A DNA stretch of 64,000 bases, from positions 57,073 through 121,072 of the forward strand of contig NZ_QRVG01000004.1 of the NCBI RefSeq assembly GCF_003459245.1. The letters run 5' to 3'. Below, one piece after another: positions 4,286 through 32,051 of this stretch (positions within the stretch are counted from its first letter, which is position 1; each line of letters opens with the position of its first letter). The notes below the pieces were generated by a model. The model ran no database searches and was not told the origin of the DNA. It saw nothing but the letters and a program-made list of their open reading frames with translations. The stretch is from Collinsella sp. AF23-2 (GTDB lineage Bacteria; Actinomycetota; Coriobacteriia; Coriobacteriales; Coriobacteriaceae). Both the position numbers and the translations under genes were made by a program.

Positions 4286-6594
4286 TGGAAGACCATAGCG
4301 ACCTTCTGGACGCGCTCTCGGCAATCGACCCGTCCACGTTGAACTACCAGGAATGGCTGGACGTCGGCATGGCGCTCCATGAGAGCGGGCTTCCGCTCGA
4401 TGCCTGGGACGAGTGGAGCCGCAGGGACGCCGGCAGGTACCACGAGGGCGAGTGCGAGCGCAAATGGCGCGGATTCGGCTCGGGGCAGACCAGGGTCAAG
4501 TCGGGCACGCTCGCGAAGATGGCGACCGAGCGCGGATGGGTCCCCCCGCGCATGTCCCAGGGAATGGGCGAGGCGCTGTCGTGGGACGGCGAGATCTCGA
4601 CCGCGCTCATCGACCCGTCATGGGTGGAGCCGGTCGAGCTGCCCGAGACCGACAAGGCAGGTCCCGAGGAGCTTGTCGAGTATCTCGGCCACCTGTTCGA
4701 CGAGGATGATGTGGTCGGCTACGTGTGCGAGAGCTGGGACCGCGAGGGCAAGTGGCTCCCCAAGTCCAAGGGCTGCTACTCGCGCACCGCCGGCGAGCTG
4801 ATGCGCGAGCTGAAGAAGTACGGCTCCATCGAGCAGGCCCTGGGCTCATACGACGACCGCGCCGGCGCATGGATCCGCATCAACCCGCTCGACGGCAAGG
4901 GCGTGGGCAACGCGAACGTCTCCGAGTTCAAGTACGCGCTGGTCGAGTCCGACACGCTGCCCAAGGAGAAGCAGCTGGCGCTCATGCAGGAGCTTCAGCT
5001 GCCGTGCGCCGCAATCGTCGATTCCGGAAAGAAGAGCCTGCACGCCGTGGTGAAGGTCGACGCCCGCGATTACAACGAGTACCGCGACCGCGTCATGCGC
5101 CTGTACGACGTTTGCCGCAAGAACGGTCTCGACCCCGACACCCAGAACAAGAACCCGAGCCGCCTGTCGAGGATGCCCGGTGCCATGCGCTCGGGCGAGC
5201 GGCAGCGCCTCGTGAGCGGACCGTGCGGCAAGGCGTCGTGGGCCGAGTGGTGGGACTGGATGCAGGAGACGACCGACGACCTGCCCGACCCCGAGAACCT
5301 GGCATCCGAGTGGGAGAACATGCCAGAGCTCGCGCCTCCGCTCATCGACGGAGTGCTGCGCCAAGGCCACAAGATGCTTATCGCGGGGCCGTCCAAGGCG
5401 GGCAAGTCGTTCGCGCTCATCGAGCTGTGCGTGTCGCTCGCCGAGGGAAAGCCGTGGTTCGGCTGGGAGTGCGCGCAGGGGAGGGTGCTCTACGTCAACC
5501 TCGAGCTCGATTCCGCGAGCTGCCTCCATCGTTTTAAAGACGTGTACAGGGCGCTCGGTTACGCGCCCGAGAACGTCGGCAACATCGACATCTGGAACCT
5601 GCGAGGGCGCTCCGTCCCCATGGACAGGCTGGCGCCGTCGCTCATCCGCCGGGCGCTCAAGACGCGCCCCATCGCCGTGGTGATCGACCCCATCTACAAG
5701 GTCATCACGGGAGACGAGAACAGCGCCGACCAGATGGCGGCGTTCTGCAACCAGTTCGACAAGGTCGCCCAGCAGGTCGGGTGCGCCGTCATCTACTGCC
5801 ACCACCACTCCAAGGGCCTGCAGGGACAGAAGCGCTCGATGGACCGCGCGTCCGGCTCCGGCGTGTTCGCGCGAGACCCGGACGCGCTGCTGGACATGAC
5901 CGCGCTCGAGCTGACGGACGAGTGCACCAAGGCGCACTACGACTGGCGCAGGCAGCACGCGATCTGGGATGCTTTCGACAGGTTTTTGCCGGAATGGCGC
6001 TCGGATGAGAAGTTCGTCGGCATCGATTCCGCCGACGATCTGCAGAAGTGGGCGAACGAGTCGGCAAACGGCGCACCCATCGAGTTGCGCCGCGAGCTCG
6101 AATCCATCCACGAGGGCTTGCGGGAATCGTCGCGCGGATGGGCGGCGTGGCGCATCGAGGGCACGCTTCGCGAGTTCCGCAGCTTCAAGCCCAAGAACCT
6201 GTGGTTCGAGTATCCCGTTCATTTACCGGATGAGACGGGTGCCTTGGCGGACTTGAAATGCGAGGGCGAGTACGACCCGAGGGCGAGCCACTCGAAGGGT
6301 AGGGAGGCATCCCAGAAGACCTTCAAATCGGAGCAGCAGCAGAAGGTGAGCCTGATCCGTGAGGCAATGGGGCAGTGCGCCGAGGACGGGGTTGAACCGA
6401 CAAGGGTCAACGTGCTCGAGCGCATCGGCGAGGTCGAGTTCAGGGGCAAACCCTTTGACATGAGGGCGCTGAAATACGCAACTGGAAACAACGCAAAATG
6501 GAGTCCATTCCGAGTAAAGGAAGGCACCGATTTGCTCTATGACAAGAACAATCAGGCGCTTGATTTCGACGGTGAAATCGACCTTTCGAACTAG
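4285..6594 (+). CDS. Primase-helicase: PriCT-2 domain plus RepA-like AAA ATPase
   Basis: 769 residues from the ATG at 4285 (AAGGAG upstream, overlap with the HNH stop). Residues about 5-85 match a PriCT-2-like domain (YQEWLDVGMALHESG ... ECERKWRGF ... GTLAKMA). A central region with LHAVVKVDA and LSRMPGAMR resembles the primase part of phage replication proteins. Residues about 360-560 are a RecA/RepA-type ATPase with Walker A GPSKAGKS at about 368-375, Walker B IAVVIDPIYK, and a CHHHSKG motif. It would unwind and prime DNA at the phage origin; the iteron-like region directly downstream supports that. The C-terminal 150 residues are unassigned. Confidence 0.88.
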   Translation: MEDHSDLLDALSAIDPSTLNYQEWLDVGMALHESGLPLDAWDEWSRRDAGRYHEGECERKWRGFGSGQTRVKSGTLAKMATERGWVPPRMSQGMGEALSWDGEISTALIDPSWVEPVELPETDKAGPEELVEYLGHLFDEDDVVGYVCESWDREGKWLPKSKGCYSRTAGELMRELKKYGSIEQALGSYDDRAGAWIRINPLDGKGVGNANVSEFKYALVESDTLPKEKQLALMQELQLPCAAIVDSGKKSLHAVVKVDARDYNEYRDRVMRLYDVCRKNGLDPDTQNKNPSRLSRMPGAMRSGERQRLVSGPCGKASWAEWWDWMQETTDDLPDPENLASEWENMPELAPPLIDGVLRQGHKMLIAGPSKAGKSFALIELCVSLAEGKPWFGWECAQGRVLYVNLELDSASCLHRFKDVYRALGYAPENVGNIDIWNLRGRSVPMDRLAPSLIRRALKTRPIAVVIDPIYKVITGDENSADQMAAFCNQFDKVAQQVGCAVIYCHHHSKGLQGQKRSMDRASGSGVFARDPDALLDMTALELTDECTKAHYDWRRQHAIWDAFDRFLPEWRSDEKFVGIDSADDLQKWANESANGAPIELRRELESIHEGLRESSRGWAAWRIEGTLREFRSFKPKNLWFEYPVHLPDETGALADLKCEGEYDPRASHSKGREASQKTFKSEQQQKVSLIREAMGQCAEDGVEPTRVNVLERIGEVEFRGKPFDMRALKYATGNNAKWSPFRVKEGTDLLYDKNNQALDFDGEIDLSN

Positions 6595-16406: not shown

Positions 16407-19400
16407 ATGTCATCTGAGGTCGGTTCCGCACATATATCGATTTTTCCCGTAATGACGGGCTTCCGCTCAAAGGTCAACAAAGAGGTAAAGTCGACCGGCG
16501 ACGAAGCCAGCAATTCATTTAAAAGCGCATTCAGGAACGCAGGCGGCATCAGCGGTCGGCAGCTTGGAAAGCAGCTGAAGGAATCCTTCGCCGCATCCTC
16601 CAAGGGCTTAGCCGACGATGCCCTCAAGGTCTTCACCGATGACGTGAAGGCCGCGACCAACGAGCTGAGCAAGGCTCGCATGAAGCAGGCAGACGATGCC
16701 GGCAGGGTCCGTGTGGCCGAGATGAAGCTGCAGGATGCCGTCGCCAAGTACGGCGAGGGCTCCACGCAGGCAGTCGCCGCCGAGGAGCGCCTGGCATCCG
16801 CACGCCGTAAATCCGAGCAGAGCGCCGCCGCCGTAAAGGACGCGACCGAGAAGCTGAACGTCGCCAACGAGTTCGCCGCCAAGGCGCAGCAGGATTTGGC
16901 GCAATATACGAACCAATCGTCCAACGCCTTCGCCCGCGCCGCCAAGAATTTCCTTGCCGGTGCTAAGTCGCTGGATGCGGGCAAGAGCTCCGCTACCGGC
17001 ATGGCAGGCGCTTTGGGTTCCATCGTCCGCGCCGCATCCGGTATCGACATGTGGGGGCCGATCGCGGCGAAGGCGACAGCCGGTCTCGCCAGGGTGAAGG
17101 CATCGATCGCCGACTTCGCCAGCAGCGCCAAGAACAGGATGCAGATTGCCGCAGCCGAGATCGGAAACGCCATCTCGGACGGCCTGTCCCGTGCTGGCAG
17201 CAAGGTGCAGGCTGTTGTTGGCAACATCGCATCGAAGCTGCCGCAACCGATTAAAAGCGTCTGCTCGACCGCGCATACGTGGTTCGCCAATGTCGAGACC
17301 GCGGCTAAATCCGTCTTCGACAAGCTGCCCGATTCCGCGAAATCGGGCATCGAGGGCGCGAAGAGCGCAATCTCCTCCGGCTTGTCCGCACTCGGCAGCA
17401 TCGGCTCCGCCGCCGCCAACGCCTTCAAGGACGTGTCCACGGCTATCGTGGGCGTGGGTGCGGGTGTCACCGTGGCGCTCGGCAAGATGGCGCTCACGGG
17501 TGGCTTCAACCGCGCCCTCAGCATCGAGGACGCGCGAGCGAAGCTGAAGGGTCTCGGCCACGATGCCGGCAGCATCGACGAGATCATGAACAACGCCCTG
17601 GCTTCGGTCAAGGGCACCGCCTACGGTCTGGGAGACGCGGCGACAACGGCGTCACAGCTCGTGGCGTCCGGCGTCAAGCAGGGCGACCAGCTCACGAGCG
17701 TCCTCAAGACGGTCGGCGATTCCGCGCAAATCTCAGGCCGAGACTTCACGGAGATGGGCTCGATCTTCTCCAAGGTAGCCGCATCCAATAAGCTCCAGGG
17801 CGAGCAGGTCAACCAGATTCTCGACTCCGGCATCCCCATCCTGCAATTCCTTGCCAAGCACTACGGCATCACCGCCGAGGAGGCCCAGAAGATGGTGTCC
17901 TCCGGCAAGGTCGACTTCGAGAACTTCGCAGCCGCCATGCAGGAGAACCTCGGCGGTGCGGCGCAGTCCGCGGGAACCACGTTCAAGGGCGCGATGGCTA
18001 ACGTCAAGGCAGCTTTCAGCCGTCTCGGCGAGAAGGCCATGACCCCCGTCCTGAACGGCCTGCGCGACATCTTCAACGCCGCAATCCCGCTGGTCGATGC
18101 CGTCACGACCAAGCTGACTCCCGTATTCGAGCAATGGGGTGACCTGGTCTCCAACACCATCGCGCCGAAGATTGTCGATGCATTCGAGAAGATCACATCC
18201 GTGCTCAGCGGCGACAGCTTCTCGGGTTTTTCCAGCGGGATCATGGCGGCAATCCCATTGGTCGGCTCCCTGGTCGCCGCCATGGGAGGCACGGGGCTTC
18301 TCGGCACCATCGGCGAGCTTCTCGTCAACGTGCCCATGGTCGGCCCGGCCCTGAAAGGTCTCGTAGGGGAGTCCGCGCTTCTCGGCAACGCGCTCAAGCT
18401 GCTCGGCGGTCCTGTCGGTGTCGTGCTGTCGCTTCTCGCCGGTCTCGTGATGATCAGCCCGACATTGCAGCAAACCCTGAGTCAGGTCGCCGGCACCATC
18501 GGCTCATCGCTGATGGATGCCTTCAGCACGCTCGCCCCCATCGCGCAGGACATTCTCGGCAAGCTGTCTCAGGCGGCATCCGAGATCTTCCCCGTCCTCG
18601 AGGATTGTCTCGGTCAGCTCTTCTCGGCAATCGGCAATGTGGTGGCTCAGCTGGCTCCGGTCGCCGCCGAAATCCTGCAACCGCTGCTCGACTGCATATC
18701 CCAGCTCATCGAGCCGCTGACCAACATCCTGACGGTCATCATGCCACCACTCACGAGCATCCTCGACGGCGTGATAGTCCTAATCGGCAGCGTCCTGTCG
18801 TTTGTCGGCCAGCTGGTCGCGGGAATCGAGTCGCTGCTGCTGCCCATCATCACGGCGGTCATTCAGGGCATCTCCGACCTGCTGACCAAGTGCAGCCCTT
18901 GGCTCGACCAGCTCGGTTCCACCTTTGAGACCGTCATGGACCTCATCGGCGATGCGCTTGAGGTGGTCGGCAGCGCACTCAACCAATTCATGTCTGTCGC
19001 GGGCTACGTAATCGAGCAGGTCGTTCAGTTTTTGGTGAGCACCCTTGAGCCCGCCTTTGCGGCGATGGCCCCGTTTATCTCGGGAATCGTCGCATCCGTA
19101 AACCAGGTGATTAGCTCGATTGCCCAGATCGTTCAGGGCGTCGTCAATTTGGTTGCCGGGCTGATTTCGGGGAATTGGTCCCAGGTCTGGCAGAGCTGCC
19201 AGCAAATCGCCAGCGGCGCCGTCGGTGCGCTCGGCGGCATCCTGAGCGGAATCTACAACGCCGCGATGGCTGCGGTCTCTGGCGCGGGGACTTGGCTCTG
19301 GAATGCAGGCAGCCAGATCATCGCCGGTCTCTGGAACGGCATCTCGGGTGCCATCGGCGGCCTGTACAACAACATCAGGAATGCGCTTTCTGGCTTGGTC

Positions 19401-19805
19401 GACGAGGCGATGAGCGCACTCGGCATCCATTCGCCTTCGCGCGTCTTCCGCGACAAGGTCGGCAAGTTCATCCCGTCCGGTATCGGCGTCGGCATCAAGC
19501 GGAACACCCCGGCGCTGCTCTCAGATGCCGACAAGATGATCGATGCCCTCGTCGACCGCGTGAGCGGCGCGTCCGCGGCTGTTGACGTGGCTGCTGGTAT
19601 GTCGCTCGCATCTGGCGCAAACGGCGCTCAGGGGGCATCTGGCGGCGCTGGCGGTCTATCCGTGGATGACATCGTGCTCGCAATCGTCACGGCACTCAGC
19701 AAGATCGGTGCGCTCAAGCTCGATGTCGACCTCAAGACGCTCGCCATGCTGCTCGCGCCTTGTATCGACTCTGAGCTCGGCAAGCGCGACGCAATGGAGG
19801 TCTAA
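16407..19805 (+). CDS. Tape measure protein
   Basis: 1132 residues, the longest phage gene. The N-terminal 300 residues are Ala/Lys-rich coiled coil (FRSKVNKEVKSTGDEASNSF is typical of actinobacterial tape measures). Residues about 330-560 match the TP901-type core (GFNRALSIEDARAKLKGLGH, SIFSKVAASNKLQGEQVN). Several hydrophobic segments (around residues 610-690 and 720-860) follow. The C-terminus has the common LGIHSPSRVFRDKVG motif. The length of this protein sets tail length; at about 0.15 nm per residue it would mean roughly 170 nm, an inference from the general rule. Confidence 0.95.
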   Translation: MSSEVGSAHISIFPVMTGFRSKVNKEVKSTGDEASNSFKSAFRNAGGISGRQLGKQLKESFAASSKGLADDALKVFTDDVKAATNELSKARMKQADDAGRVRVAEMKLQDAVAKYGEGSTQAVAAEERLASARRKSEQSAAAVKDATEKLNVANEFAAKAQQDLAQYTNQSSNAFARAAKNFLAGAKSLDAGKSSATGMAGALGSIVRAASGIDMWGPIAAKATAGLARVKASIADFASSAKNRMQIAAAEIGNAISDGLSRAGSKVQAVVGNIASKLPQPIKSVCSTAHTWFANVETAAKSVFDKLPDSAKSGIEGAKSAISSGLSALGSIGSAAANAFKDVSTAIVGVGAGVTVALGKMALTGGFNRALSIEDARAKLKGLGHDAGSIDEIMNNALASVKGTAYGLGDAATTASQLVASGVKQGDQLTSVLKTVGDSAQISGRDFTEMGSIFSKVAASNKLQGEQVNQILDSGIPILQFLAKHYGITAEEAQKMVSSGKVDFENFAAAMQENLGGAAQSAGTTFKGAMANVKAAFSRLGEKAMTPVLNGLRDIFNAAIPLVDAVTTKLTPVFEQWGDLVSNTIAPKIVDAFEKITSVLSGDSFSGFSSGIMAAIPLVGSLVAAMGGTGLLGTIGELLVNVPMVGPALKGLVGESALLGNALKLLGGPVGVVLSLLAGLVMISPTLQQTLSQVAGTIGSSLMDAFSTLAPIAQDILGKLSQAASEIFPVLEDCLGQLFSAIGNVVAQLAPVAAEILQPLLDCISQLIEPLTNILTVIMPPLTSILDGVIVLIGSVLSFVGQLVAGIESLLLPIITAVIQGISDLLTKCSPWLDQLGSTFETVMDLIGDALEVVGSALNQFMSVAGYVIEQVVQFLVSTLEPAFAAMAPFISGIVASVNQVISSIAQIVQGVVNLVAGLISGNWSQVWQSCQQIASGAVGALGGILSGIYNAAMAAVSGAGTWLWNAGSQIIAGLWNGISGAIGGLYNNIRNALSGLVDEAMSALGIHSPSRVFRDKVGKFIPSGIGVGIKRNTPALLSDADKMIDALVDRVSGASAAVDVAAGMSLASGANGAQGASGGAGGLSVDDIVLAIVTALSKIGALKLDVDLKTLAMLLAPCIDSELGKRDAMEV

Positions 19806-20600
19806 ATGGCTGATTCTAGGTTAGGTATCTACTTGCGCAACAAGATGTTCGTCGATGACGGCACGGTCACCGTGAACGGCGTCAGGCTCGGCGATATGGG
19901 CTGGTATCTGACCTCCGCGCCGGAGGTCGATGCCATCTCGTTCGACACGTCCTACACGACCGTCACCGGAGCCCACGGCTCCCGTGATCTTTCGCTGACA
20001 GACGGCAGCGGTCTCGCCTATGCCGGCAGGCGCACGGTGACGCTCCACCTGCGTACGGTCGGCACGTGGCAGGAGGCGGTCAAGTCCAAGATTGCGCTCG
20101 GCTCCATCGTCGGTCGCGATGCTCGCGTCACATGGCGTGCGCTCCCCGGCGATTTCGTCGGCAGGCTCGAATCGTCAAGCCCCAGCGAGGTCTGGCAGCG
20201 CGGTGTGTTCGCCTACTACGAAATCGACCTGACGATGAGCGCTATGCCAATGCTGTACGGCAGGAAAACGGCGGTGAGCGGTACGAAATTGACCGTGAGC
20301 GGCAACTGCCGGGTGTTCCCGACATTCACCGCCACGCTCAAGGCCGAGAAGAAGCTGAAGATTTCCCGCGCGGACGGCGTGTTCATCGAGGTCGATGCCG
20401 AGAGGATCTTTGCCGCCGGCGCCGTCGCCGTCATCGAGACCTCGCCGGCCAAATCGCGCGGCGTGTACATCAATGACGTCTTGACCTGCCCGACACTCAC
20501 ATCGGATTTCTTCGACCTGCCAGTTGGGGACTCGACCATCACAGTGGTCGGTGCAAGCAGCATCACGACATCATATGAGCCGCTCTGGCTCATCCCCTAG
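19806..20600 (+). CDS. Distal tail protein (Dit)
   Basis: 264 residues, start one base after the tape measure stop (GGAGG at 19796-19800). The N-terminal half has the Dit/siphovirus tail component pattern (GVRLGDMGWYLTSAPEVDA, then HGSRDLSLTDGSG, then RRTVTLHLRTVG), and the C-terminal part is beta-rich ending in YEPLWLIP. Dit hexamers join the tube to the baseplate. Order tape measure, Dit, Tal is canonical. Confidence 0.88.
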   Translation: MADSRLGIYLRNKMFVDDGTVTVNGVRLGDMGWYLTSAPEVDAISFDTSYTTVTGAHGSRDLSLTDGSGLAYAGRRTVTLHLRTVGTWQEAVKSKIALGSIVGRDARVTWRALPGDFVGRLESSSPSEVWQRGVFAYYEIDLTMSAMPMLYGRKTAVSGTKLTVSGNCRVFPTFTATLKAEKKLKISRADGVFIEVDAERIFAAGAVAVIETSPAKSRGVYINDVLTCPTLTSDFFDLPVGDSTITVVGASSITTSYEPLWLIP

Positions 20601-20611
20601 GAGACGGTCAG

Positions 20612-23497
20612 ATGTCCAAGAGATTCATCCATTTCAGCCGTTTCGGCGCATACCTCGGCGAGCTCACGCCGATGCAGGCCACGCGCACGCGCAATGTCGA
20701 CCAGTGCGGCGTTGACAAGGTGGAGCTCGTCCTGATGGACAACGGTGTCAACAAGTACGACCGCATCGTGTTCTGTGATTCCATGGGGCGCACGTGCGAA
20801 TGGATCGTCATGTCCTCGCGCGAGTCGAGGGCGAAGAGCATACCTATCTGCACCGTCAACTGCTACGGCTCCATGCAGGAGCTATCGCGACATTTCATGC
20901 CGACGCTACGCCGCGGCTCCAAAGACACGCCCGAGCAGGCTCTTGCAAAGGCACTCGATGGCACCAGATGGTCGGTAGGCCAGTGCGACGAGGGCAGCGG
21001 CGAATACAGCGTCTACCACAAGTCCTCGCTGGCTTCCGTCAAAGATATAGCCGAAGCCTACAAAATGGAGGTCGAGCCGGTAATCGAGTTGTCTGCAGAC
21101 GGCAACTCCATCGCCAAGCGCTCGGTCTGCCTGGTCAAGCGCCTCGGTCGTGCCAATACTGCGCTGCGTCTCGACTACGGTAGCGGTCTGTCCGGCATTG
21201 ACCGAGTTCTGTCCGCAGATGACGTGGTTACGCGCTTATATTGCTACGGCAAGGGCGTACAGACAACGGATGACGATGGAAATGCGACTGGCGGATATTC
21301 GCGTAAGATCACATTTGCCGACATCAACGGCGGCAAAGAGTACATCCAGGATGATTCACTGCTCGAGGTCTGGGGCGTGCCAGGTCCCGATGGGTCGCTC
21401 ATGCACACCGAGGGCATCTTTGAGGACGGAGACTGCGAGGACAAGGCAACGCTTCTCGCCGAGGGCAGGGCTGCGCTCGCCGAGCGCTCGAAGCCCATCG
21501 TGAGCTACGAGGGTACGGTCGAAGCCCTCGGTCGCGCGGGATTCGATGCCAGCGCCTGCGACCTCGGCGATAACCTCCAGATGGTCGACACCACGTTCCC
21601 AAAGCCGCTGCGACTGAGCGGTCGCGTGCTTGAGATCGTGGAAGACCTGCTCAGTGACGGCTCGCCGTCCACCGTGAAGGTCGGCAACGTCATCGAGGGC
21701 ATCGTCAAGCGCTCCGATCGCGTGCAGCAGACAATCGACCGCCTGACGAGCAGCGCCGGCAGTTGGGACAGCGCCGCCACGCTCGGCAGCGCCTACCTCA
21801 ATGGGCTTATCGACGGCCTGAACAAGGTGATGAACGAGACCGGCGGCTACACCTACATCAAGCCCGGCAAGGGCCTGTTCGTCTACGACAAACCGGAGGA
21901 TGCCAACCCGACCATGTGCATCCAGATCGGCGGCGGCTACTTCCGCATCGCCGACGGCAAGAATTCGGACGGCACGTGGAACTTCCGCACGCTCGGCAAC
22001 GGGCATGGTTTGGTGGCCGATGCGATCGTCTCCGGCACCATCAGCGCCAACCTGATCAAGGCCGGCATCATCAAAGACAAAAGCGGCAAGAACTACTGGA
22101 ATCTCGATGCCAGCGAGGTCCGTCTAGGCCCCGGCGCCAAGCTTGACGGCAAGGACATCGCAACAACGAACACTGTGGTCAAGTCCACGGTGAAGCTCTA
22201 CGCGAAGAATCAGTCCGACACAGTGCCGCCTCTGAACATGCAGAATCCCGAGTTGGGATGGTCTGAGGACATACCGCAATGGTCGAACGGCTATTTCATC
22301 TGGGAGATGGACCGCATCACCTACGGCGACGGCTCGGTCAACCATTCAACGCCCGTCCTCGTGGCTGCGCTGAATAAGGCGAACCAGAGTGCCTACGACC
22401 TCAACCAATCTCTCAACGACCTCGATACCACGGTCAACGACCTCGCCACAGACGGCGTCGTGACCGAGGCTGAGAAGGCTGCGGTCAAGAAGATTCAGCA
22501 GACCATCGACAAGGAGAAGGACGAGCTGACAACGCAGTTCAACGGTCTGAAGTCCAACAAGTCGTTGAATCAATATTTCATCGGCAATGTCCTAGGCCCA
22601 ACGTACAATTCTGCTTTCGGTACAGGCGGCTCATACGGCTCGCTCAACACCGCCATCTCGGACGTGCTCAAATGCACCACGAAGGAAGCGCTGGACAGCG
22701 CCATGGCTACCTATAAGTCCTGCTACAACACGCACTCAGGTAATGTCAACACATATACCGCCGCGGCACGTCAGGCGCAGCATGCCATCGAGCAACAGGA
22801 TGCCAAGTCTATGGCGCAGGGTCTGCTCGACAACTACGACGATGATTTGAACCAGCTCAAGATTTTCAACCGTCTGACAAACAACGGTACCGAGCAGGGC
22901 ATCTACATGCAGGACAACAAGCTGTACATGAACGCCAGCTACCTTGCCGCAGGCATCATCGCAGACGTGACCAACACGAACAGCTGGAATCTCAAGACCG
23001 GTTATCTCAAGACGACGCGCGGCACCATCGGCGGATTCACCATCGACAAATATAACATCTCCAACAACAGGCTGTCGCTTCAGGACGACGGTCCTCATTT
23101 CATCTATGACGGCAAAGACATCGGCTTCATCGGTAGCAACCATCTCGTCGAGCACCCAAGCGTATACGGACTTAACTTCAATCTGAAAGAGTCCGGCGGC
23201 TATATGTCTTGGGCTGCGATGAAGAACGCAGACGATCCGTATTACGCAATGAAGCTGACGTATGCGAACAAGCCAAACATCGGTTTCACGGCCTATGCGC
23301 TCAACGCCGGATGCGATCTGGACATGCACAACTGGTCGATTAAAAACATCGGCAACGGATGTACCAATACGCTTCGATTTACCGTTGTCACCAACGCCAA
23401 CAAAGACGGAAGCTTTACGTTCTCAAACGGATGCAGCATGAAGTTCGAGGGCGGTTTGCTTACACACTTTGCATGGCCTGTGAATAACTATTCGTAG
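20612..23497 (+). CDS. Tail-associated lysin/Tal-like baseplate hub protein
   Basis: 961 residues. The N-terminal 380 residues match the prophage tail hub fold (MSKRFIHFSRFGAYLGEL, VDQCGVDKVELVLMDNG, LRLSGRVLEIVEDLL). The middle holds a typical ADAIVSGTISANLIKAGIIK motif, then a coiled-coil region with AVKKIQQTIDKEKDELTTQF. The C-terminal third is beta-rich with GYLKTTRGTIGGFTIDKYNI, often seen before tip domains. It likely forms the hub trimer that opens the tube and contacts the cell surface. No peptidase motif was identified. Confidence 0.85.
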   Translation: MSKRFIHFSRFGAYLGELTPMQATRTRNVDQCGVDKVELVLMDNGVNKYDRIVFCDSMGRTCEWIVMSSRESRAKSIPICTVNCYGSMQELSRHFMPTLRRGSKDTPEQALAKALDGTRWSVGQCDEGSGEYSVYHKSSLASVKDIAEAYKMEVEPVIELSADGNSIAKRSVCLVKRLGRANTALRLDYGSGLSGIDRVLSADDVVTRLYCYGKGVQTTDDDGNATGGYSRKITFADINGGKEYIQDDSLLEVWGVPGPDGSLMHTEGIFEDGDCEDKATLLAEGRAALAERSKPIVSYEGTVEALGRAGFDASACDLGDNLQMVDTTFPKPLRLSGRVLEIVEDLLSDGSPSTVKVGNVIEGIVKRSDRVQQTIDRLTSSAGSWDSAATLGSAYLNGLIDGLNKVMNETGGYTYIKPGKGLFVYDKPEDANPTMCIQIGGGYFRIADGKNSDGTWNFRTLGNGHGLVADAIVSGTISANLIKAGIIKDKSGKNYWNLDASEVRLGPGAKLDGKDIATTNTVVKSTVKLYAKNQSDTVPPLNMQNPELGWSEDIPQWSNGYFIWEMDRITYGDGSVNHSTPVLVAALNKANQSAYDLNQSLNDLDTTVNDLATDGVVTEAEKAAVKKIQQTIDKEKDELTTQFNGLKSNKSLNQYFIGNVLGPTYNSAFGTGGSYGSLNTAISDVLKCTTKEALDSAMATYKSCYNTHSGNVNTYTAAARQAQHAIEQQDAKSMAQGLLDNYDDDLNQLKIFNRLTNNGTEQGIYMQDNKLYMNASYLAAGIIADVTNTNSWNLKTGYLKTTRGTIGGFTIDKYNISNNRLSLQDDGPHFIYDGKDIGFIGSNHLVEHPSVYGLNFNLKESGGYMSWAAMKNADDPYYAMKLTYANKPNIGFTAYALNAGCDLDMHNWSIKNIGNGCTNTLRFTVVTNANKDGSFTFSNGCSMKFEGGLLTHFAWPVNNYS

Positions 23498-24131: not shown

Positions 24132-24926
24132 ATGGCTCTAGACAACTTCCGTCGCATCACCATCAATGTGGACACGGCAAATGATTACATCCCGCCAGTG
24201 ACGCTCTCCGGCGGCGATTCAAACGGTCGCACGCTTTTGGTCAAGCTTACGGACAACGGTAAGGCGATCACGTCCGCCGCCGGCATCACGGCGAAGCTGG
24301 CGTACGCCGATGGGTGCGGCAACAGCGGCTACAAGACGATGACCCCGGTCAGCGGTTATGAGACCGCCGCCTGGGAGTGCGCGGCACCCGGCAGCGTGCT
24401 CAAGACCGATTCAGCGCATCTGTGCGTACAGTTCTGGCAGGGCTCCGATGTGGTCTGCACACGTGTCTTCCATGCTTCGGTCGACCGAAATCTCGTATCG
24501 CTCGAATCCGGCACGACCAGCGGCGATGCGGTCAAGGAGCTTTACGACACGATCGCGAACCTCAATCAGGTCATTAATCGCGCCAACGCATCAGCGAACA
24601 AGGCTGATTCGTCCGCCGCTTCGGCAGATGCGAACGCCGACGCCGCGAACAGGGCGGCAAGCGCAGCCACCGCCGCAGCAAAGCAGGCCAACGCCGCGGC
24701 ATCCGCGACCAAGCCATACTACATGCAGGCCGCGGAGCCCGCCCGCGACAAACGCGTGGACGGCATGCTCTGGATGCAGACCAACGAGAGCACCAAGAAG
24801 ATCGCGGCATTCAACCGCTGGGATGCAGGGCTTCCCGGCACGGCGCTGTGGCCCGGCGCCACGACATTCCCCTCCGACAGCACATTCCCCGATGAAAAGG
24901 GCGCTTGGACCGCCTTCGGTATCTAA
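24132..24926 (+). CDS. BppU-like baseplate upper protein
   Basis: 264 residues, RBS GGGGG upstream. The N-terminal 125 residues have the BppU/DUF2479 pattern (DNFRRITINVDTANDYIPPV, FWQGSDVVCTRVFHASVD). Residues about 150-195 are an Ala/Asn/Ser-rich coiled coil (NASANKADSSAASADANADA). The C-terminal 60 residues are a small globular tip (RVDGMLWMQTNESTKKIAAF). In lactococcal-type phages BppU holds the receptor-binding proteins on the baseplate. It lies directly before the variable tail gene, which is the likely partner. Confidence 0.75.
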   Translation: MALDNFRRITINVDTANDYIPPVTLSGGDSNGRTLLVKLTDNGKAITSAAGITAKLAYADGCGNSGYKTMTPVSGYETAAWECAAPGSVLKTDSAHLCVQFWQGSDVVCTRVFHASVDRNLVSLESGTTSGDAVKELYDTIANLNQVINRANASANKADSSAASADANADAANRAASAATAAAKQANAAASATKPYYMQAAEPARDKRVDGMLWMQTNESTKKIAAFNRWDAGLPGTALWPGATTFPSDSTFPDEKGAWTAFGI

Positions 24927-24941
24927 CGAAAGGACACCATA

Positions 24942-25295
24942 ATGGCATTCGAGAAAATCGTATTCGCAATGAAGACTTGGAAGGACAAGGTCTCCGGTAA
25001 CACTCCCGTCACCGCCGCGGAGCTGAACCGAATCGAGAAGGGAATCAGCGACTGCGCGAAGCAGACCAATGCTCTCGGGGATTCCGTATCCCAGAAACTC
25101 GGGAAGATACAGGAGGCAAGTTATGCAGGCATGGCTTGGCTCACCATCGGGAAAAGCGAAGATGACCCGGATAGACGAGGGCTAGCCTGGTCGGACAACG
25201 AGCTCGTTGTTATTCGCGGCGGAAAGCATGTTGCGAAAGTTAAGCTGACGCCGATAAACGTATCGTCCGACCAGACGGACGCAGAGCTTAGCTAG
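24942..25295 (+). CDS. Tail receptor-binding-type protein with invertible C-terminus (expressed variant)
   Basis: 117 residues. Residues 1-50 are the constant part (MAFEKIVFAMKTWKDKVSGN and a TPVTAAELNRIEKGISD helix, typical of phage tail fibre start modules). The recombination site TTCCGTATCCC covers codons 48-50 (Ser-Val-Ser). Residues 51-117 (QKLGKIQEASYAGM to the end) are the exchangeable tip. Swapping in the other four cassettes would give proteins of 113, 106, 97 and 132 residues, all sharing the first 50. The constant part probably anchors the protein on the BppU-like protein, and the tips probably bind different surface structures. Confidence 0.88.
   Translation: MAFEKIVFAMKTWKDKVSGNTPVTAAELNRIEKGISDCAKQTNALGDSVSQKLGKIQEASYAGMAWLTIGKSEDDPDRRGLAWSDNELVVIRGGKHVAKVKLTPINVSSDQTDAELS
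25082..25092 (+). repeat. Shufflon site A (forward, inside expressed gene)
   Basis: TTCCGTATCCC. With flanking bases the site reads GGGAT-TCCGT-ATCCC (25078-25092), 5-bp perfect inverted arms around a 5-base centre, as expected for a tyrosine recombinase core site. Confidence 0.85.
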
Positions 25296-25296
25296 G

Positions 25297-25488
25297 CTAC
25301 TTCGACAGCGCGACCTTGGTTGATTCACCCGTCGCGCTGTTCATGTAGCTGAACTTGTCGGCAGAAAAACCGAGCGTCACGACCGAATCGTCGGACATCG
25401 TAACCTCGACGATCACATCGGTCGTGTTGTTGTTCGACTGCCTGAATCGCACGTTTTTGACCGTTGCCGTAACGTACTTCTCGCAGCG
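25297..25488 (-). pseudogene. Silent C-terminal cassette 1
   Basis: From site B the frame runs 63 codons after Ser-Val-Ser and ends with TAG at 25299-25297. The tip begins RCEKYVTATVKNVRFRQSNN and contains a beta-like VVTLGFSADKFSYMNSATG. No start codon or ribosome-binding site of its own is present, as expected for a silent cassette. Joined to the constant part it would give a 113-residue protein. Confidence 0.85.
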
Positions 25489-25498
25489 GGATACGGAA
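25488..25498 (-). repeat. Shufflon site B (inverted)
   Basis: GGGATACGGAA on the plus strand, the exact reverse complement of site A. It heads silent cassette 1 (25297-25488) and lies 2 bases from the stop of cassette 2. Confidence 0.85.
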
Positions 25499-25500
25499 AA

Positions 25501-25671
25501 CTATTTGTCCTTGTTAAATAGAGCGATTCTTTTACTCTCGGTCTCGTTAAAGACGAGAATACTGTCACTTAAGAAGTTCACCGTAATCCTGGTTGCTCCG
25601 AGTTGAAAACCGAAGGTTGGCAAATTTTGGTTATTAAGTTCCACTTTCGCCGTAATGTCGTTGGAAGTCCG
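25501..25671 (-). pseudogene. Silent C-terminal cassette 2
   Basis: 56 codons from site C to TAG at 25503-25501, beginning RTSNDITAKVELNNQNLPTF and ending IALFNKDK. It is AT-richer than the surrounding phage genes. Joined product 106 residues. Confidence 0.82.
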
Positions 25672-25681
25672 GAATACGGAA
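25671..25681 (-). repeat. Shufflon site C (inverted, one mismatch)
   Basis: GGAATACGGAA differs from the consensus at one base, changing the encoded Ser-Val-Ser to Ser-Val-Phe. It may recombine less often. It heads silent cassette 2. Confidence 0.8.
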
Positions 25682-25683
25682 TG

Positions 25684-25827
25684 CTACTGAACACTCTGCG
25701 AAAAATTGGAGTTTTTGAAGTAGATGCTTACGGTTTTCCCGTCGTTTCTTTTGATGTCGATTGATGCGCCGCCATCATTCCACACCGAGAAGTACACAGC
25801 GACAGCCTGTTGCTTTAGGCCAAATCG
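25684..25827 (-). pseudogene. Silent C-terminal cassette 3
   Basis: 47 codons from site D to TAG at 25686-25684, beginning RFGLKQQAVAVYFSVWNDGG with the segment KTVSIYFKNSNF. It is the shortest tip; joined product 97 residues. Confidence 0.82.
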
Positions 25828-25837
25828 GGATACGGAA
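25827..25837 (-). repeat. Shufflon site D (inverted)
   Basis: Exact GGGATACGGAA. It heads silent cassette 3 and is 4 bases from the stop of cassette 4. Confidence 0.85.
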
Positions 25838-25841
25838 TGCT

Positions 25842-26090
25842 CTAGCTCAGCGTCACGTACTTCCAGTCAGTCCAATTTGAGCCGTTGCGTTTGTTTCTGA
25901 TCGCTATCTTGTCGGAGCCGAATCCAAACGCGAGCTGCGCCGAGTAGGTTTTATCACCGAAATTTTGCTGGATGACAATGCAACTATTTCCTCCAAGTTT
26001 AGACGGGAACCCTTTCGGGTCGGGTGACGTATTAAGAATGAGCGCCGTGGGTGGGTTGTCCAAATCGTTAACTTCCATCGCGTAAACGCG
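25842..26090 (-). pseudogene. Silent C-terminal cassette 4
   Basis: 82 codons from site E to TAG at 25844-25842. The tip contains NPPTALILNTSPDPKGFPS and ends with NGSNWTDWKYVTLS, a pattern common at the ends of phage tail fibres and pyocin-type tips. It has an internal Met, so it could be mistaken for a 78-residue gene on its own, but no ribosome-binding site precedes it. Joined product 132 residues. Confidence 0.85.
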
Positions 26091-26100
26091 GGATACGGAA
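26090..26100 (-). repeat. Shufflon site E (inverted, touching the recombinase gene)
   Basis: Exact GGGATACGGAA, ending at 26100; the recombinase stop codon (TCA on the plus strand) starts at 26101. It heads silent cassette 4. Inversions therefore never disturb the recombinase gene. Confidence 0.85.
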
Positions 26101-26967
26101 TCACATCTCCATCGCCGCTGTGTACGAATCGCTCGCCCTAGCCACGACCGTGCGGAAACTCTGCAAATAGTGGCTCATGGCCGTATTCACCGTTGAATGC
26201 CCCAGCGCCACGACGATGTCCTCGATGGCTGCACCGTGCTCAAGCGATATGGTCGCCCACGAGTGGCGCAGACAAGTCATGGGCACATGCGGCAGGCTGA
26301 ATCGCTTACAGAATGCGCGGAACTTGCGGGCGACGGCGTTGGGGTCGAGCAGGCACAGGCGCCCAGACCTACGCGCCCCACGTATCGCACGAAGGCGCTC
26401 CAATGCAAAGCGCGGCAGTTTTAGCTTGCGGTCAGACAGCTTGGTCTTGCATCCCGTCTCGATGACCTCGCCGCCCACGACGTGCAGGCCACGCTGTACG
26501 TGAACCCATCCCGAGCGCCAGTCCACATCCTCGATTCTCACGGCGCACGCCTCACATCGGCGAAGCCCGAGAGCGGCACCCAAGAGCACGGCGGCCTCAA
26601 ATGGCTGTCCCACGATTGCTTTCAGCGTAGTGCGCTCCTGCTCAGCGGTCAGTGTCGGTCGGCGCACGGTTGGCTTTTGCGGCAGCTCCACGCCCTGCGT
26701 AACGTCCCAGATGCGCAGTTGGTGGCGGCGCAAGACCCAGCGGTATATCTGGCGGAATGTCTTGTAGGCCTTCTCGGCGGCACCGGGCAGGTCGAACGAA
26801 TCCACCCAATCCTGTACCTCTCCAAAGCTGATCGTCTCTATCTCGCGCCCGCCCCACATCGGCATCAGGTGGCAGCGGATGGCGCTTCGGTAGCCCTCCA
26901 GCGTGGTGGCGCGCAGGCGCTTACATTTGTCGGCCATGTACTCAGTGACGGCGGTGGAAAACAGCAT
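26101..26967 (-). CDS. Tyrosine recombinase, probable shufflon invertase
   Basis: 288 residues; the ATG at 26967 is fixed by an in-frame stop two codons upstream. Residues 1-85 form a SAM-like core-binding domain (RLRATTLEGYRSAIRCHLMP). The catalytic part has the first Arg in GAALGLRRCEACAVR, the beta-hairpin Lys in KTKLSDRKLKLP, box II TCLRHSWAT, then ALGHSTVNTAMSHY with His and the nucleophile Tyr. The usual first His of HxxR is Thr here. It lacks the N-terminal arm-binding domain of lambda-type integrases, like Rci and Xer. Its 3' end touches site E. It may also serve as the phage integrase, as no other integrase is seen in the window. Confidence 0.85.
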   Translation of the reverse strand: MLFSTAVTEYMADKCKRLRATTLEGYRSAIRCHLMPMWGGREIETISFGEVQDWVDSFDLPGAAEKAYKTFRQIYRWVLRRHQLRIWDVTQGVELPQKPTVRRPTLTAEQERTTLKAIVGQPFEAAVLLGAALGLRRCEACAVRIEDVDWRSGWVHVQRGLHVVGGEVIETGCKTKLSDRKLKLPRFALERLRAIRGARRSGRLCLLDPNAVARKFRAFCKRFSLPHVPMTCLRHSWATISLEHGAAIEDIVVALGHSTVNTAMSHYLQSFRTVVARASDSYTAAMEM

Positions 26968-29178: not shown

Positions 29179-29219
29179 CCTTGGTATGTGTAACATCCAG
29201 TAAGGATTTGTACATGCTA

Positions 29220-31656: not shown

Positions 31657-31794
31657 TGCGCCCGGGAGGGCCGCATATGAAGTTTCCTGCTCTACAGTCC
31701 TGCGCAAGACGGAAAGCACATTAAGTGCTTTCCTTTGCGTGCGGAACTCGCGATAAACTTCATATGCGCCCCTCCCGGTCGCAAGCAAAAGGGC
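31646..31794 (-). repeat. Structured intergenic element A1
   Basis: Outer arms of 40 bases (31646-31685 with 31755-31794) pair with only two true mismatches. Inside is a 9-bp perfect hairpin (GGAAAGCAC at 31711-31719 with GTGCTTTCC at 31725-31733, loop ATTAA) and a short helper stem. Two blocks, 31677-31703 and 31738-31763, are identical in reverse complement to blocks in element A2, while the stems differ. It contains no gene. Candidate structured RNA, or a small mobile or palindromic element. Confidence 0.7.
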
Positions 31795-31918
31795 TGGTTA
31801 GTGTCGCTCGCTATTTAGTTAGACAGTCTATTCAGTAGTCAGATTTCAGATCTGTAGATAGCCGCAGCAGCATCTTCCCATATAAAACCGACCAAAACAA
31901 ACCTGTCCTTTTTTGGCA

Positions 31919-32051
31919 GGTTTCCCGTGGGGCGGGCGCTGATGAAGTTTATCGCGAGTTCCGCACGAACAGGAGGCCACTTAATGTGGCCTCCGTCGTG
32001 AGCAGGACTGTAGAGCAGGAAACTTCATCAGCGCCCGCCCCACGGGAAACC
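31919..32051 (+). repeat. Structured intergenic element A2
   Basis: Perfect 32-bp outer arms (31919-31950 with 32020-32051). Inside, GGAGGCCAC (31972-31980) pairs with GTGGCCTCC (31986-31994) over loop TTAAT; a helper stem CACGA/TCGTG surrounds it. The blocks 31942-31967 and 32002-32028 match A1 exactly, in opposite orientation. Compared with A1 the stem bases are changed on both sides together. Between A1 and A2 (31795-31918) nothing else is recognisable apart from a weak hairpin at 31899-31923. Confidence 0.72.

What the first reader, a model, noticed from the sequence alone, without database searches (positions are those of the whole stretch)
25078..26100. A five-variant shufflon for a phage tail protein C-terminus
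The site TTCCGTATCCC lies inside the expressed tail gene (codons 48-50) and recurs inverted four times downstream (25488, 25671, 25827, 26090). Each inverted copy opens a minus-strand frame in the same phase as the expressed gene and runs 63, 56, 47 and 82 codons to a stop located 1-5 bases from the next boundary. All cassette lengths are exact multiples of three from the site. This is direct evidence of an inversion-driven switch of the tip of a receptor-binding-type protein. Shufflons are known from R64 pilV with Rci, from Mu/P1-type tail fibre inversion with serine recombinases, and similar tyrosine-recombinase systems have been described in Bifidobacterium prophages; I know of no description for this site family in a Coriobacteriia prophage.
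Basis: partly seen in the sequence, partly recalled or inferred. Interest (0 to 1): 0.97.

Follow-up and report, generated by a model that had tools for sequence, protein, structure and literature searches.

The report
Rin-type shufflon of a Collinsella prophage
A prophage in a gut bacterium (likely a Collinsella) carries five alternative ends for one predicted tail-region protein, laid out so that the neighbouring recombinase would flip any of four stored ends into the working gene; arrays of the same kind are found in flipped states in related phages, and a published precedent exists in Eggerthella lenta.

Summary
TTCCGTATCCC lies at 25082 (+) and inverted at 25488, 25671 (one mismatch), 25827 and 26090; at up to one mismatch these are the window's only copies (0.64 expected). 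The inverted copies open cassettes of 63, 56, 47 and 82 codons in the phase of the 50-codon constant part, beside a 288-aa tyrosine recombinase. It is an inversion shufflon of the published Rin type; the claim of no Coriobacteriia precedent fails, since PMC8778435 describes one in E. lenta prophages with ttccgtat. The window shows one state only. In relatives, two record pairs, about 100% identical, differ by inversions breaking at the sites, in one pair within TTCCGTA. Near-identical constant parts in public proteins carry about 20 clusters of ends; a cassette 98% like the silent one at 25488 occurs fused in frame. New here: the working site usually has a full dyad, GGGAT-TCCGT-ATCCC (GGGA in 19 of 23), other sites rarely (4 of 87), apparently a DNA-level constraint; and some cassettes are shared, bounded by sites, between divergent phages.

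The parts
24942..25091 (+). constant N-terminal part (Rc), 50 codons, of the expressed 117-aa protein (whole ORF 24942-25295)
   Evidence: PHROG matches 'head fiber protein' (4.1e-9, residues 8-68) and 'minor tail protein' (2.8e-4, residues 8-49); N-terminus shared at 98% or more by 35 of 120 listed public proteins, the window's own among them
25078..25092 (+). crossover site in the expressed gene: core TTCCGTATCCC at 25082-25092, extended to the dyad GGGAT-TCCGT-ATCCC
   Evidence: dyad comparison
25092..25295 (+). currently expressed cassette (67 codons from the junction, plus stop)
   Evidence: the same end at 68-93% identity in 13 other public proteins
25297..25488 (-). silent cassette 1, 63 codons plus stop
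   Evidence: found 98.4% identical over 63 aa and fused in frame to a constant part in P0074
25488..25498 (-). inverted crossover site, exact
25501..25671 (-). silent cassette 2, 56 codons plus stop
25671..25681 (-). inverted crossover site, TTCCGTATTCC (1 mismatch)
25684..25827 (-). silent cassette 3, 47 codons plus stop
25827..25837 (-). inverted crossover site, exact
25842..26090 (-). silent cassette 4, 82 codons plus stop
   Evidence: relatives in frame on a constant part: P0089 66%, P0047 54%, P0041 51%
26090..26100 (-). inverted crossover site, exact, abutting the stop codon of the recombinase gene
26101..26967 (-). tyrosine recombinase, 288 aa, Rin-like, predicted invertase
   Evidence: Pfam Phage_integrase 3.6e-10 and Phage_int_SAM_3 8.8e-9 starting at residue 3; R136, K174, R234, H257 and Y267 shared by all 29 aligned array recombinases
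24132..24926 (+). upstream neighbour, weak BppU_N-like (baseplate upper protein) N-terminus
   Evidence: Pfam 1.9e-4, 21.6 bits, below the curated cut-off of 23.1
20612..23497 (+). tail endopeptidase/Tal-like protein; with a Dit-like gene 19806-20600 and the tape measure gene 16407-19805 it places the array at the end of the tail module

Best explanation
Five alternative C-terminal cassettes of one predicted phage tail-region gene lie here around a shared 11-bp site beside a tyrosine recombinase, which is predicted to invert the DNA between the site in the working gene and any stored site facing it, so that the 50-residue constant part would gain a different end. Shown directly: sites, phases, cassettes, an intact recombinase gene, and one state in this window. 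Shown in relatives: inversion with breakpoints at the sites in two pairs, and dissimilar ends on near-identical constant parts. Inferred: that this recombinase does it in this prophage, that the protein is a tail tip or fibre, and that the switch changes which cells the phage attaches to. The host is likely a Collinsella (best flank segments 83-85% identical to two Collinsella genomes, 74% to Slackia).
For: Sites and frames. Recombinase; a separate 376-aa integrase-family protein lies at the left end of the matching virus record (L015:1-1131). Same layout in relatives: 16 of 396 class genomes carry a relative at E<=1e-50; 2 of the 16 (L042, L048) have too little 3' sequence, and the other 14 all have TTCC-like repeats directly 3' of the gene (motifs were read off each locus; L038 and L041 have just two sites, and L040 shows four in one direction before its contig ends). 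State pairs: L005 and L014 are 100% identical in three blocks and differ by one whole-array inversion; neighbouring blocks overlap by 7 bp, TTCCGTA. L010 and L009 are about 100% identical and differ by two inversions. All cassettes are kept in both pairs. Protein record: 35 of 120 listed homologues share the constant part at 98% or more and carry 20 clusters of C-termini at a 30% threshold (24 at 50%). A cassette 98.4% identical to silent cassette 1 is fused in frame in P0074.
Against: No read data, so switching is not shown in this prophage; the only other copy held (G002/L006) is in the same state. Five other sets of matching records show no difference: L003/L012, L034/L072, L039/L063 and, over part of the array, L035/L055 and L050/L051; some may be copies of the same assemblies. 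No Pfam domain in the expressed protein or its four silent cassettes; both structure models are of low confidence (pLDDT 62.8 and 44.5), so receptor binding rests on position and analogy. Silent cassette 2 has only a weak partial match and cassette 3 none among the listed public proteins. One site has a mismatch.
Confidence: 0.93

Rival explanations
1. The array is a fossil: the recombinase once shuffled the cassettes but is now inactive in this prophage, and only the current end is ever made.
For: Only one state is seen, the same in the window and in G002; one site carries a mismatch.
Against: Recombinase ORF intact with the catalytic positions kept; the four silent frames are open to the expected end; a cassette 98% identical to silent cassette 1 is found in use elsewhere; in L009/L010 a site with a mismatch at position 10 took part in an inversion.
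Confidence: 0.06
2. The 288-aa recombinase is the prophage integrase and the repeats are unrelated to it, the cassettes being moved by another enzyme or by homologous recombination.
For: Annotated relatives are called 'integrase' and the PHROG matches are integrases.
Against: A second tyrosine-recombinase-family protein of 376 aa sits at the other end of the virus record; 14 of 14 testable relatives at E<=1e-50 in the class survey have repeats directly 3' of the gene; breakpoint blocks overlap by 7 bp in one pair, too short for ordinary homologous recombination.
Confidence: 0.03
3. The inverted cassettes are separate small genes transcribed from the minus strand rather than alternative ends.
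For: They are open frames on the minus strand.
Against: They are in phase with the constant part at the site, and C-termini like cassettes 1 and 4 are found fused to the constant part in P0074, P0089, P0047 and P0041. Their own start codons were not examined.
Confidence: 0.02

Closest known systems
Rin shufflon of Eggerthella lenta clade 1 prophages (PMC8778435; passages seen)
   Same: Class Coriobacteriia; tyrosine recombinase distinct from the integrase at the opposite wing; tandem small Rv genes; Rc gene with an internal site; repeat ttccgtat equals the first 8 bases of this site.
   Different: Different genus (likely Collinsella here); the constant part here is only 50 codons, while that paper calls Rc 'a much larger gene'; its Rv genes often have H-type lectin domains, and Pfam found none here. 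The passages seen infer shuffling from alignments.
Rin shufflon of Bifidobacterium prophages (PMC6109161; section 8 read, other passages seen)
   Same: Armless tyrosine recombinase, 11-bp rix (TTCCCTAACCC there), constant N-terminus plus several dissimilar C-terminal cassettes, inversion seen in prophage and virion DNA.
   Different: A Bifidobacterium phage, PMBT6, has a 38% identical recombinase beside TTCCGTAACCC sites.
R64 pilV shufflon with Rci (passages of PMC11852207 seen)
   Same: Tyrosine recombinase, many asymmetric sites with a poorly conserved left arm and a 7-bp core, C-terminal switching.
   Different: Rci sites have a 12-bp right arm and Rci has an extra C-terminal domain; here conservation ends about 4 bp past the 7-bp stretch and the recombinase ends 21 residues after its tyrosine.
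Gin/Cin/Min tail-fibre inversion of Mu, P1 and p15B (recalled, and as told in PMC6109161)
   Same: Phage tail protein variants by inversion.
   Different: Serine recombinases; a tyrosine recombinase here.

Membership tests
Rin shufflon | Tyrosine-family recombinase without an N-terminal arm-binding domain beside the array | tested here: met
   288 aa; SAM-like core-binding domain starts at residue 3, catalytic domain 125-270; gene abuts the last site
Rin shufflon | Recombinase distinct from the prophage integrase | tested here: met
   376-aa Phage_integrase protein at the left end of the matching virus record G002
Rin shufflon | Short asymmetric repeat (rix) before each cassette and inside the constant gene, rare elsewhere | tested here: met
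   Five copies within 1.02 kb, none elsewhere in the window at up to one mismatch
Rin shufflon | Constant N-terminus plus several mutually dissimilar C-terminal cassettes in one phase | tested here: met
   none of the window's five cassettes matches another of the 128 cassettes at E<=1e-5
Rin shufflon | Inversions seen at the sites | tested here: inconclusive
   Seen in relatives (L005/L014 and L009/L010); not seen in this prophage, where one state is held
Rin shufflon | Second, directly oriented site just after the stop of the full-length gene (described for the published state) | tested here: inconclusive
   Absent in the window's state, where the expressed cassette meets silent cassette 1 tail to tail; it depends on the state, being present in the arrays L005, L007 and L009
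Rin shufflon | Sequence homology to the Bifidobacterium Rin protein | tested here: inconclusive
   Bb423phi1 Rin was not at hand; indirect: 38% identity to the PMBT6 recombinase
Rin shufflon | Switch changes host range | not testable with these tools
   The Bifidobacterium paper's section 8 also leaves it to future studies
R64 Rci shufflon | Conserved 12-bp right arm after a 7-bp core | tested here: not met
   Information content is 0.43 bits or less at each position after 11 in 129 sites of 29 arrays
R64 Rci shufflon | Extra C-terminal domain of the recombinase | tested here: not met
   Catalytic tyrosine at 267 of 288 residues
Gin/Cin/Min serine-invertase switches | Serine recombinase | tested here: not met
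   Phage_integrase family, R/K/R/H/Y positions conserved

The most novel reading that the evidence does not exclude
The switch has a built-in hierarchy of sites: the slot in the working gene keeps a complete palindromic site (GGGAT-TCCGT-ATCCC) whose left arm can never be flipped away, while stored cassettes carry half-sites, so the working gene is the obligate or preferred partner and stored cassettes rarely recombine with each other. This would answer how an armless tyrosine recombinase shuffles without shredding its library, and site-bounded cassettes circulate between divergent Coriobacteriia phages like a shared library of tips.
Probability: 0.35. Interest if true: 0.75.

Novelty: new member of a known kind. 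Interest (0 to 1): 0.5.

Why it matters
It extends a published but little-studied phage switch from Eggerthella and Bifidobacterium to Collinsella, Slackia and other Coriobacteriia, and gives natural before-and-after pairs, one of which places the crossover within 7 bp. The Sci Rep 2018 paper names directionality (inversion without deletion) as an open question of this enzyme; the arm difference between the working site and the stored sites makes that question testable with natural site pairs. The 20 or so clusters of ends on one near-identical constant part show how large the shared pool of tail ends may be.

Tried and rejected
Host assembly: not held, and no reads are at hand. Phage DNA search with the 5-kb region: no match. 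Exact 42-base junction in viral contigs: only the matching record, so no second state of this very prophage was found. Pfam on the expressed protein and silent cassettes: nothing; of five cassettes of relatives tried, one (L013) matches Gp10_C. Structure: two models of low confidence, so no fold search was run. Orientation bookkeeping: 30 of 31 arrays have no '-+' neighbour, but by my reasoning any inversion between facing sites keeps this, so it does not separate 'working site only' from 'any pair'. The L010 to L009 change has two shortest paths of two inversions; one uses the working site in both steps, the other in one, so it does not decide either. Rows dropped: duplicate loci of one sequence (L012, L016, L055, L062-L064, L066, L071-L073 and the like); 13 loci without a recombinase match; L056 and L069, which have one, and the weak relatives L076 and L077, were not parsed; L042 and L048 had too little 3' DNA. 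For the arm comparison L049, L051, L059 and L067 were left out because the pattern that fetched them contained the arm. Of the four last sites without GGGA, L043's is not in an open frame and L004's is the inverted copy of a stored site at a contig end, so both may not be working sites; L037 and L038 are true exceptions. Against the arm pattern: at 80% recombinase clustering 12 of 16 clusters have a stronger dyad at the working site, 2 are equal, 2 weaker; L039 has GGGA at two of its three other sites.

Full report
WHAT IS THERE. The site TTCCGTATCCC lies at 25082 on the plus strand and inverted at 25488, 25671 (TTCCGTATTCC), 25827 and 26090; with one mismatch allowed these are the only five in 64 kb, against 0.64 expected, and 0 of 100 shuffles reach five. 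The expressed ORF is 24942-25295 (117 aa). Reading from the inverted sites in the phase of the constant part gives cassettes of 63, 56, 47 and 82 codons, hence alternative proteins of 113, 106, 97 and 132 aa sharing their first 50 residues, ending ...GDSVS. In dinucleotide shuffles, the chance that the first in-phase stop falls within 5 nt of the end is 0.0104, 0.0046, 0.0116 and 0.0034 for the four cassettes. The last site abuts the stop codon of a 288-aa tyrosine recombinase gene, 26101-26967 minus.

SURROUNDINGS. Upstream run portal, capsid, tape measure, Dit-like and Tal-like genes; downstream a weakly holin-like gene and an amidase endolysin. A virus record, G002, matches the region at 100%; its left end carries a separate 376-aa integrase-family protein. 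Similarity to the nearest genome starts near 29192, at 94%; the best segments of the same flank match two Collinsella genomes at 83 and 85% (others 77-81%) and Slackia at 74%, so the host is likely a Collinsella.

RELATIVES. Recombinase relatives were found in Slackia isoflavoniconvertens (83%), an uncultured Collinsella (61%) and C. stercoris (56%), in nine viral records, one of them the record matching the window, and in 16 of 396 genomes of the class at E<=1e-50. Two of the 16 have too little 3' sequence; the other 14 all have TTCC-like repeats directly 3' of the gene, in L038 and L041 just two sites. In 29 parsed arrays the site varies with the locus (ATCCGTATCCC, TTCCTTGTCCC, TTCCATATCCC, TTCCGTAACCC and others); the first site always reads away from the recombinase, and the last faces it in all but L008 and L040, which end at a contig end.

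SWITCHING IN RELATIVES. L014 and L005 (C. stercoris) are 100% identical in three blocks but the whole array is inverted; neighbouring blocks overlap by exactly 7 bp, TTCCGTA, which bounds the crossover. L014 is an IMG virus record whose strain name I did not see. L010 and L009, from two IMG/VR records, are about 100% identical and differ by two inversions, with different expressed cassettes and all seven cassettes kept. L004, a contig of a metagenome bin, ends in a 119-bp inverted copy of its own array, as expected if the assembler met two states. Five other sets of matching records are in the same state, two of them compared over part of the array; some may be copies of the same assemblies.

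PUBLIC PROTEINS. Of 139 homologues of the expressed protein, 120 were listed. A junction was recognised in 115 of 120; 44 keep the constant part at 90% or more and 35 at 98% or more, the window's own protein included; the C-termini of those 35 fall into 20 clusters at a 30% threshold and 24 at 50%. Silent cassette 1 appears 98.4% identical over all 63 residues, fused in frame to a constant part 86% identical to this one (P0074); cassette 4 has fused relatives at 66, 54 and 51% (P0089, P0047, P0041), the last two on a constant part 100% identical to this one. Cassette 2 had only a weak partial match (44% over 32 residues) and cassette 3 none.

ARM ASYMMETRY. The working site reads GGGAT-TCCGT-ATCCC, a 15-bp dyad centred on the 7-bp crossover stretch. 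Outside the four arrays fetched with a pattern containing the arm, GGGA is found at 19 of 23 last (working) sites and 4 of 87 others (Fisher P = 7e-14, not corrected for kinship). Of the four without it, L043's is out of frame and L004's is a contig-end copy of a stored site; L037 and L038 are true exceptions. At 80% recombinase clustering, 13 of 16 clusters have GGGA in the majority of working sites, 2 of 16 at the others; the dyad is stronger at the working site in 12, equal in 2, weaker in 2. The residue coded there is Gly, Arg or Trp (once Gln), yet 7 of 8 Gly are GGG and 8 of 9 Arg are CGG, codons used for 4.4% and 5.5% of these residues in 11 window genes (codon use of the other genomes was not measured). 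The sequence rather than the residue seems to be kept. Since the crossover lies right of this arm, the arm stays with the working gene through every inversion. That it steers partner choice is inference.

CASSETTE TRAFFIC. Of 128 cassettes, 59 have a relative at E<=1e-5. L008 and L013 share a cassette at 91% aa (95% DNA), the matching block running from 3 bp before one site to the end of the next, while their recombinases are 67% identical; L010 and L011 (recombinases 91%) share a block bounded in the same way at 84% DNA. L045 and L051 share cassettes at 98, 92 and 80% aa with recombinases 68% identical; their DNA boundaries were not checked. None of the window's cassettes has a relative in that set.

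COMPARISON WITH THE LITERATURE. The term 'Rin shufflon' occurs in three held papers. PMC6109161 (section 8 read; other passages) described it in Bifidobacterium prophages with rix TTCCCTAACCC and inversions in prophage and virion DNA, and asks how deletion is avoided. PMC8778435 (passages seen) describes it in E. lenta prophages with ttccgtat. PMC12282274 was seen only in the listing. The four site strings searched, as whole words, occur in no other held paper, and a search for shufflon with Collinsella gave none. Rci facts come from passages of PMC11852207. I saw no mention of a dyad at the working site in section 8 of PMC6109161 or in the passages of PMC8778435 (there 'palindrom' and 'symmetric' as word starts: 0); the rest of these papers was not read for it, and most subscription papers are not held.

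VERDICT. A real, probably active Rin-type shufflon: a new member of a known kind, ordinary in mechanism, with two observations (arm asymmetry and site-bounded cassette sharing) that I did not see described and that merit a follow-up.

Noticed in passing
L034, sites 6444 (-) and 6498 (+): The only array of 31 with a '-+' neighbour pair: two sites about 50 bp apart with no cassette between them, an empty slot.
   Followed up: partly
L047, sites at 4304 (+) and 5246 (-) as parsed: One array holds the same 57-aa cassette twice, in the first stored slot and in the last slot; real duplication or assembly of two states.
   Followed up: no
L037:3501-7730: Pieces of the locus recur, direct and inverted, near the contig end; possibly assembly of mixed states.
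   Followed up: no
window 26101-26967 and the 28 aligned relatives: The position three residues before the second catalytic arginine, usually His in tyrosine recombinases (recalled), is Thr here and Thr, Lys, Gln, Arg, Glu or Met in the relatives, including those whose arrays inverted.
   Followed up: partly
L013:6290-6688: One stored cassette of a relative matches Gp10_C (baseplate structural protein C-terminal domain, 1.2e-15), a hint that tips come from other tail proteins.
   Followed up: no
window about 31660-32050: Stretch with two copies in opposite orientation of an element of roughly 80-120 bp that recurs at many places in the nearest genome G001.
   Followed up: no
P0018 against window 25263-25292: A protein with a different cassette ends in SSDQTGAELS, almost the last residues of the window's expressed cassette (SSDQTDAELS), suggesting exchange also inside cassettes.
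   Followed up: no
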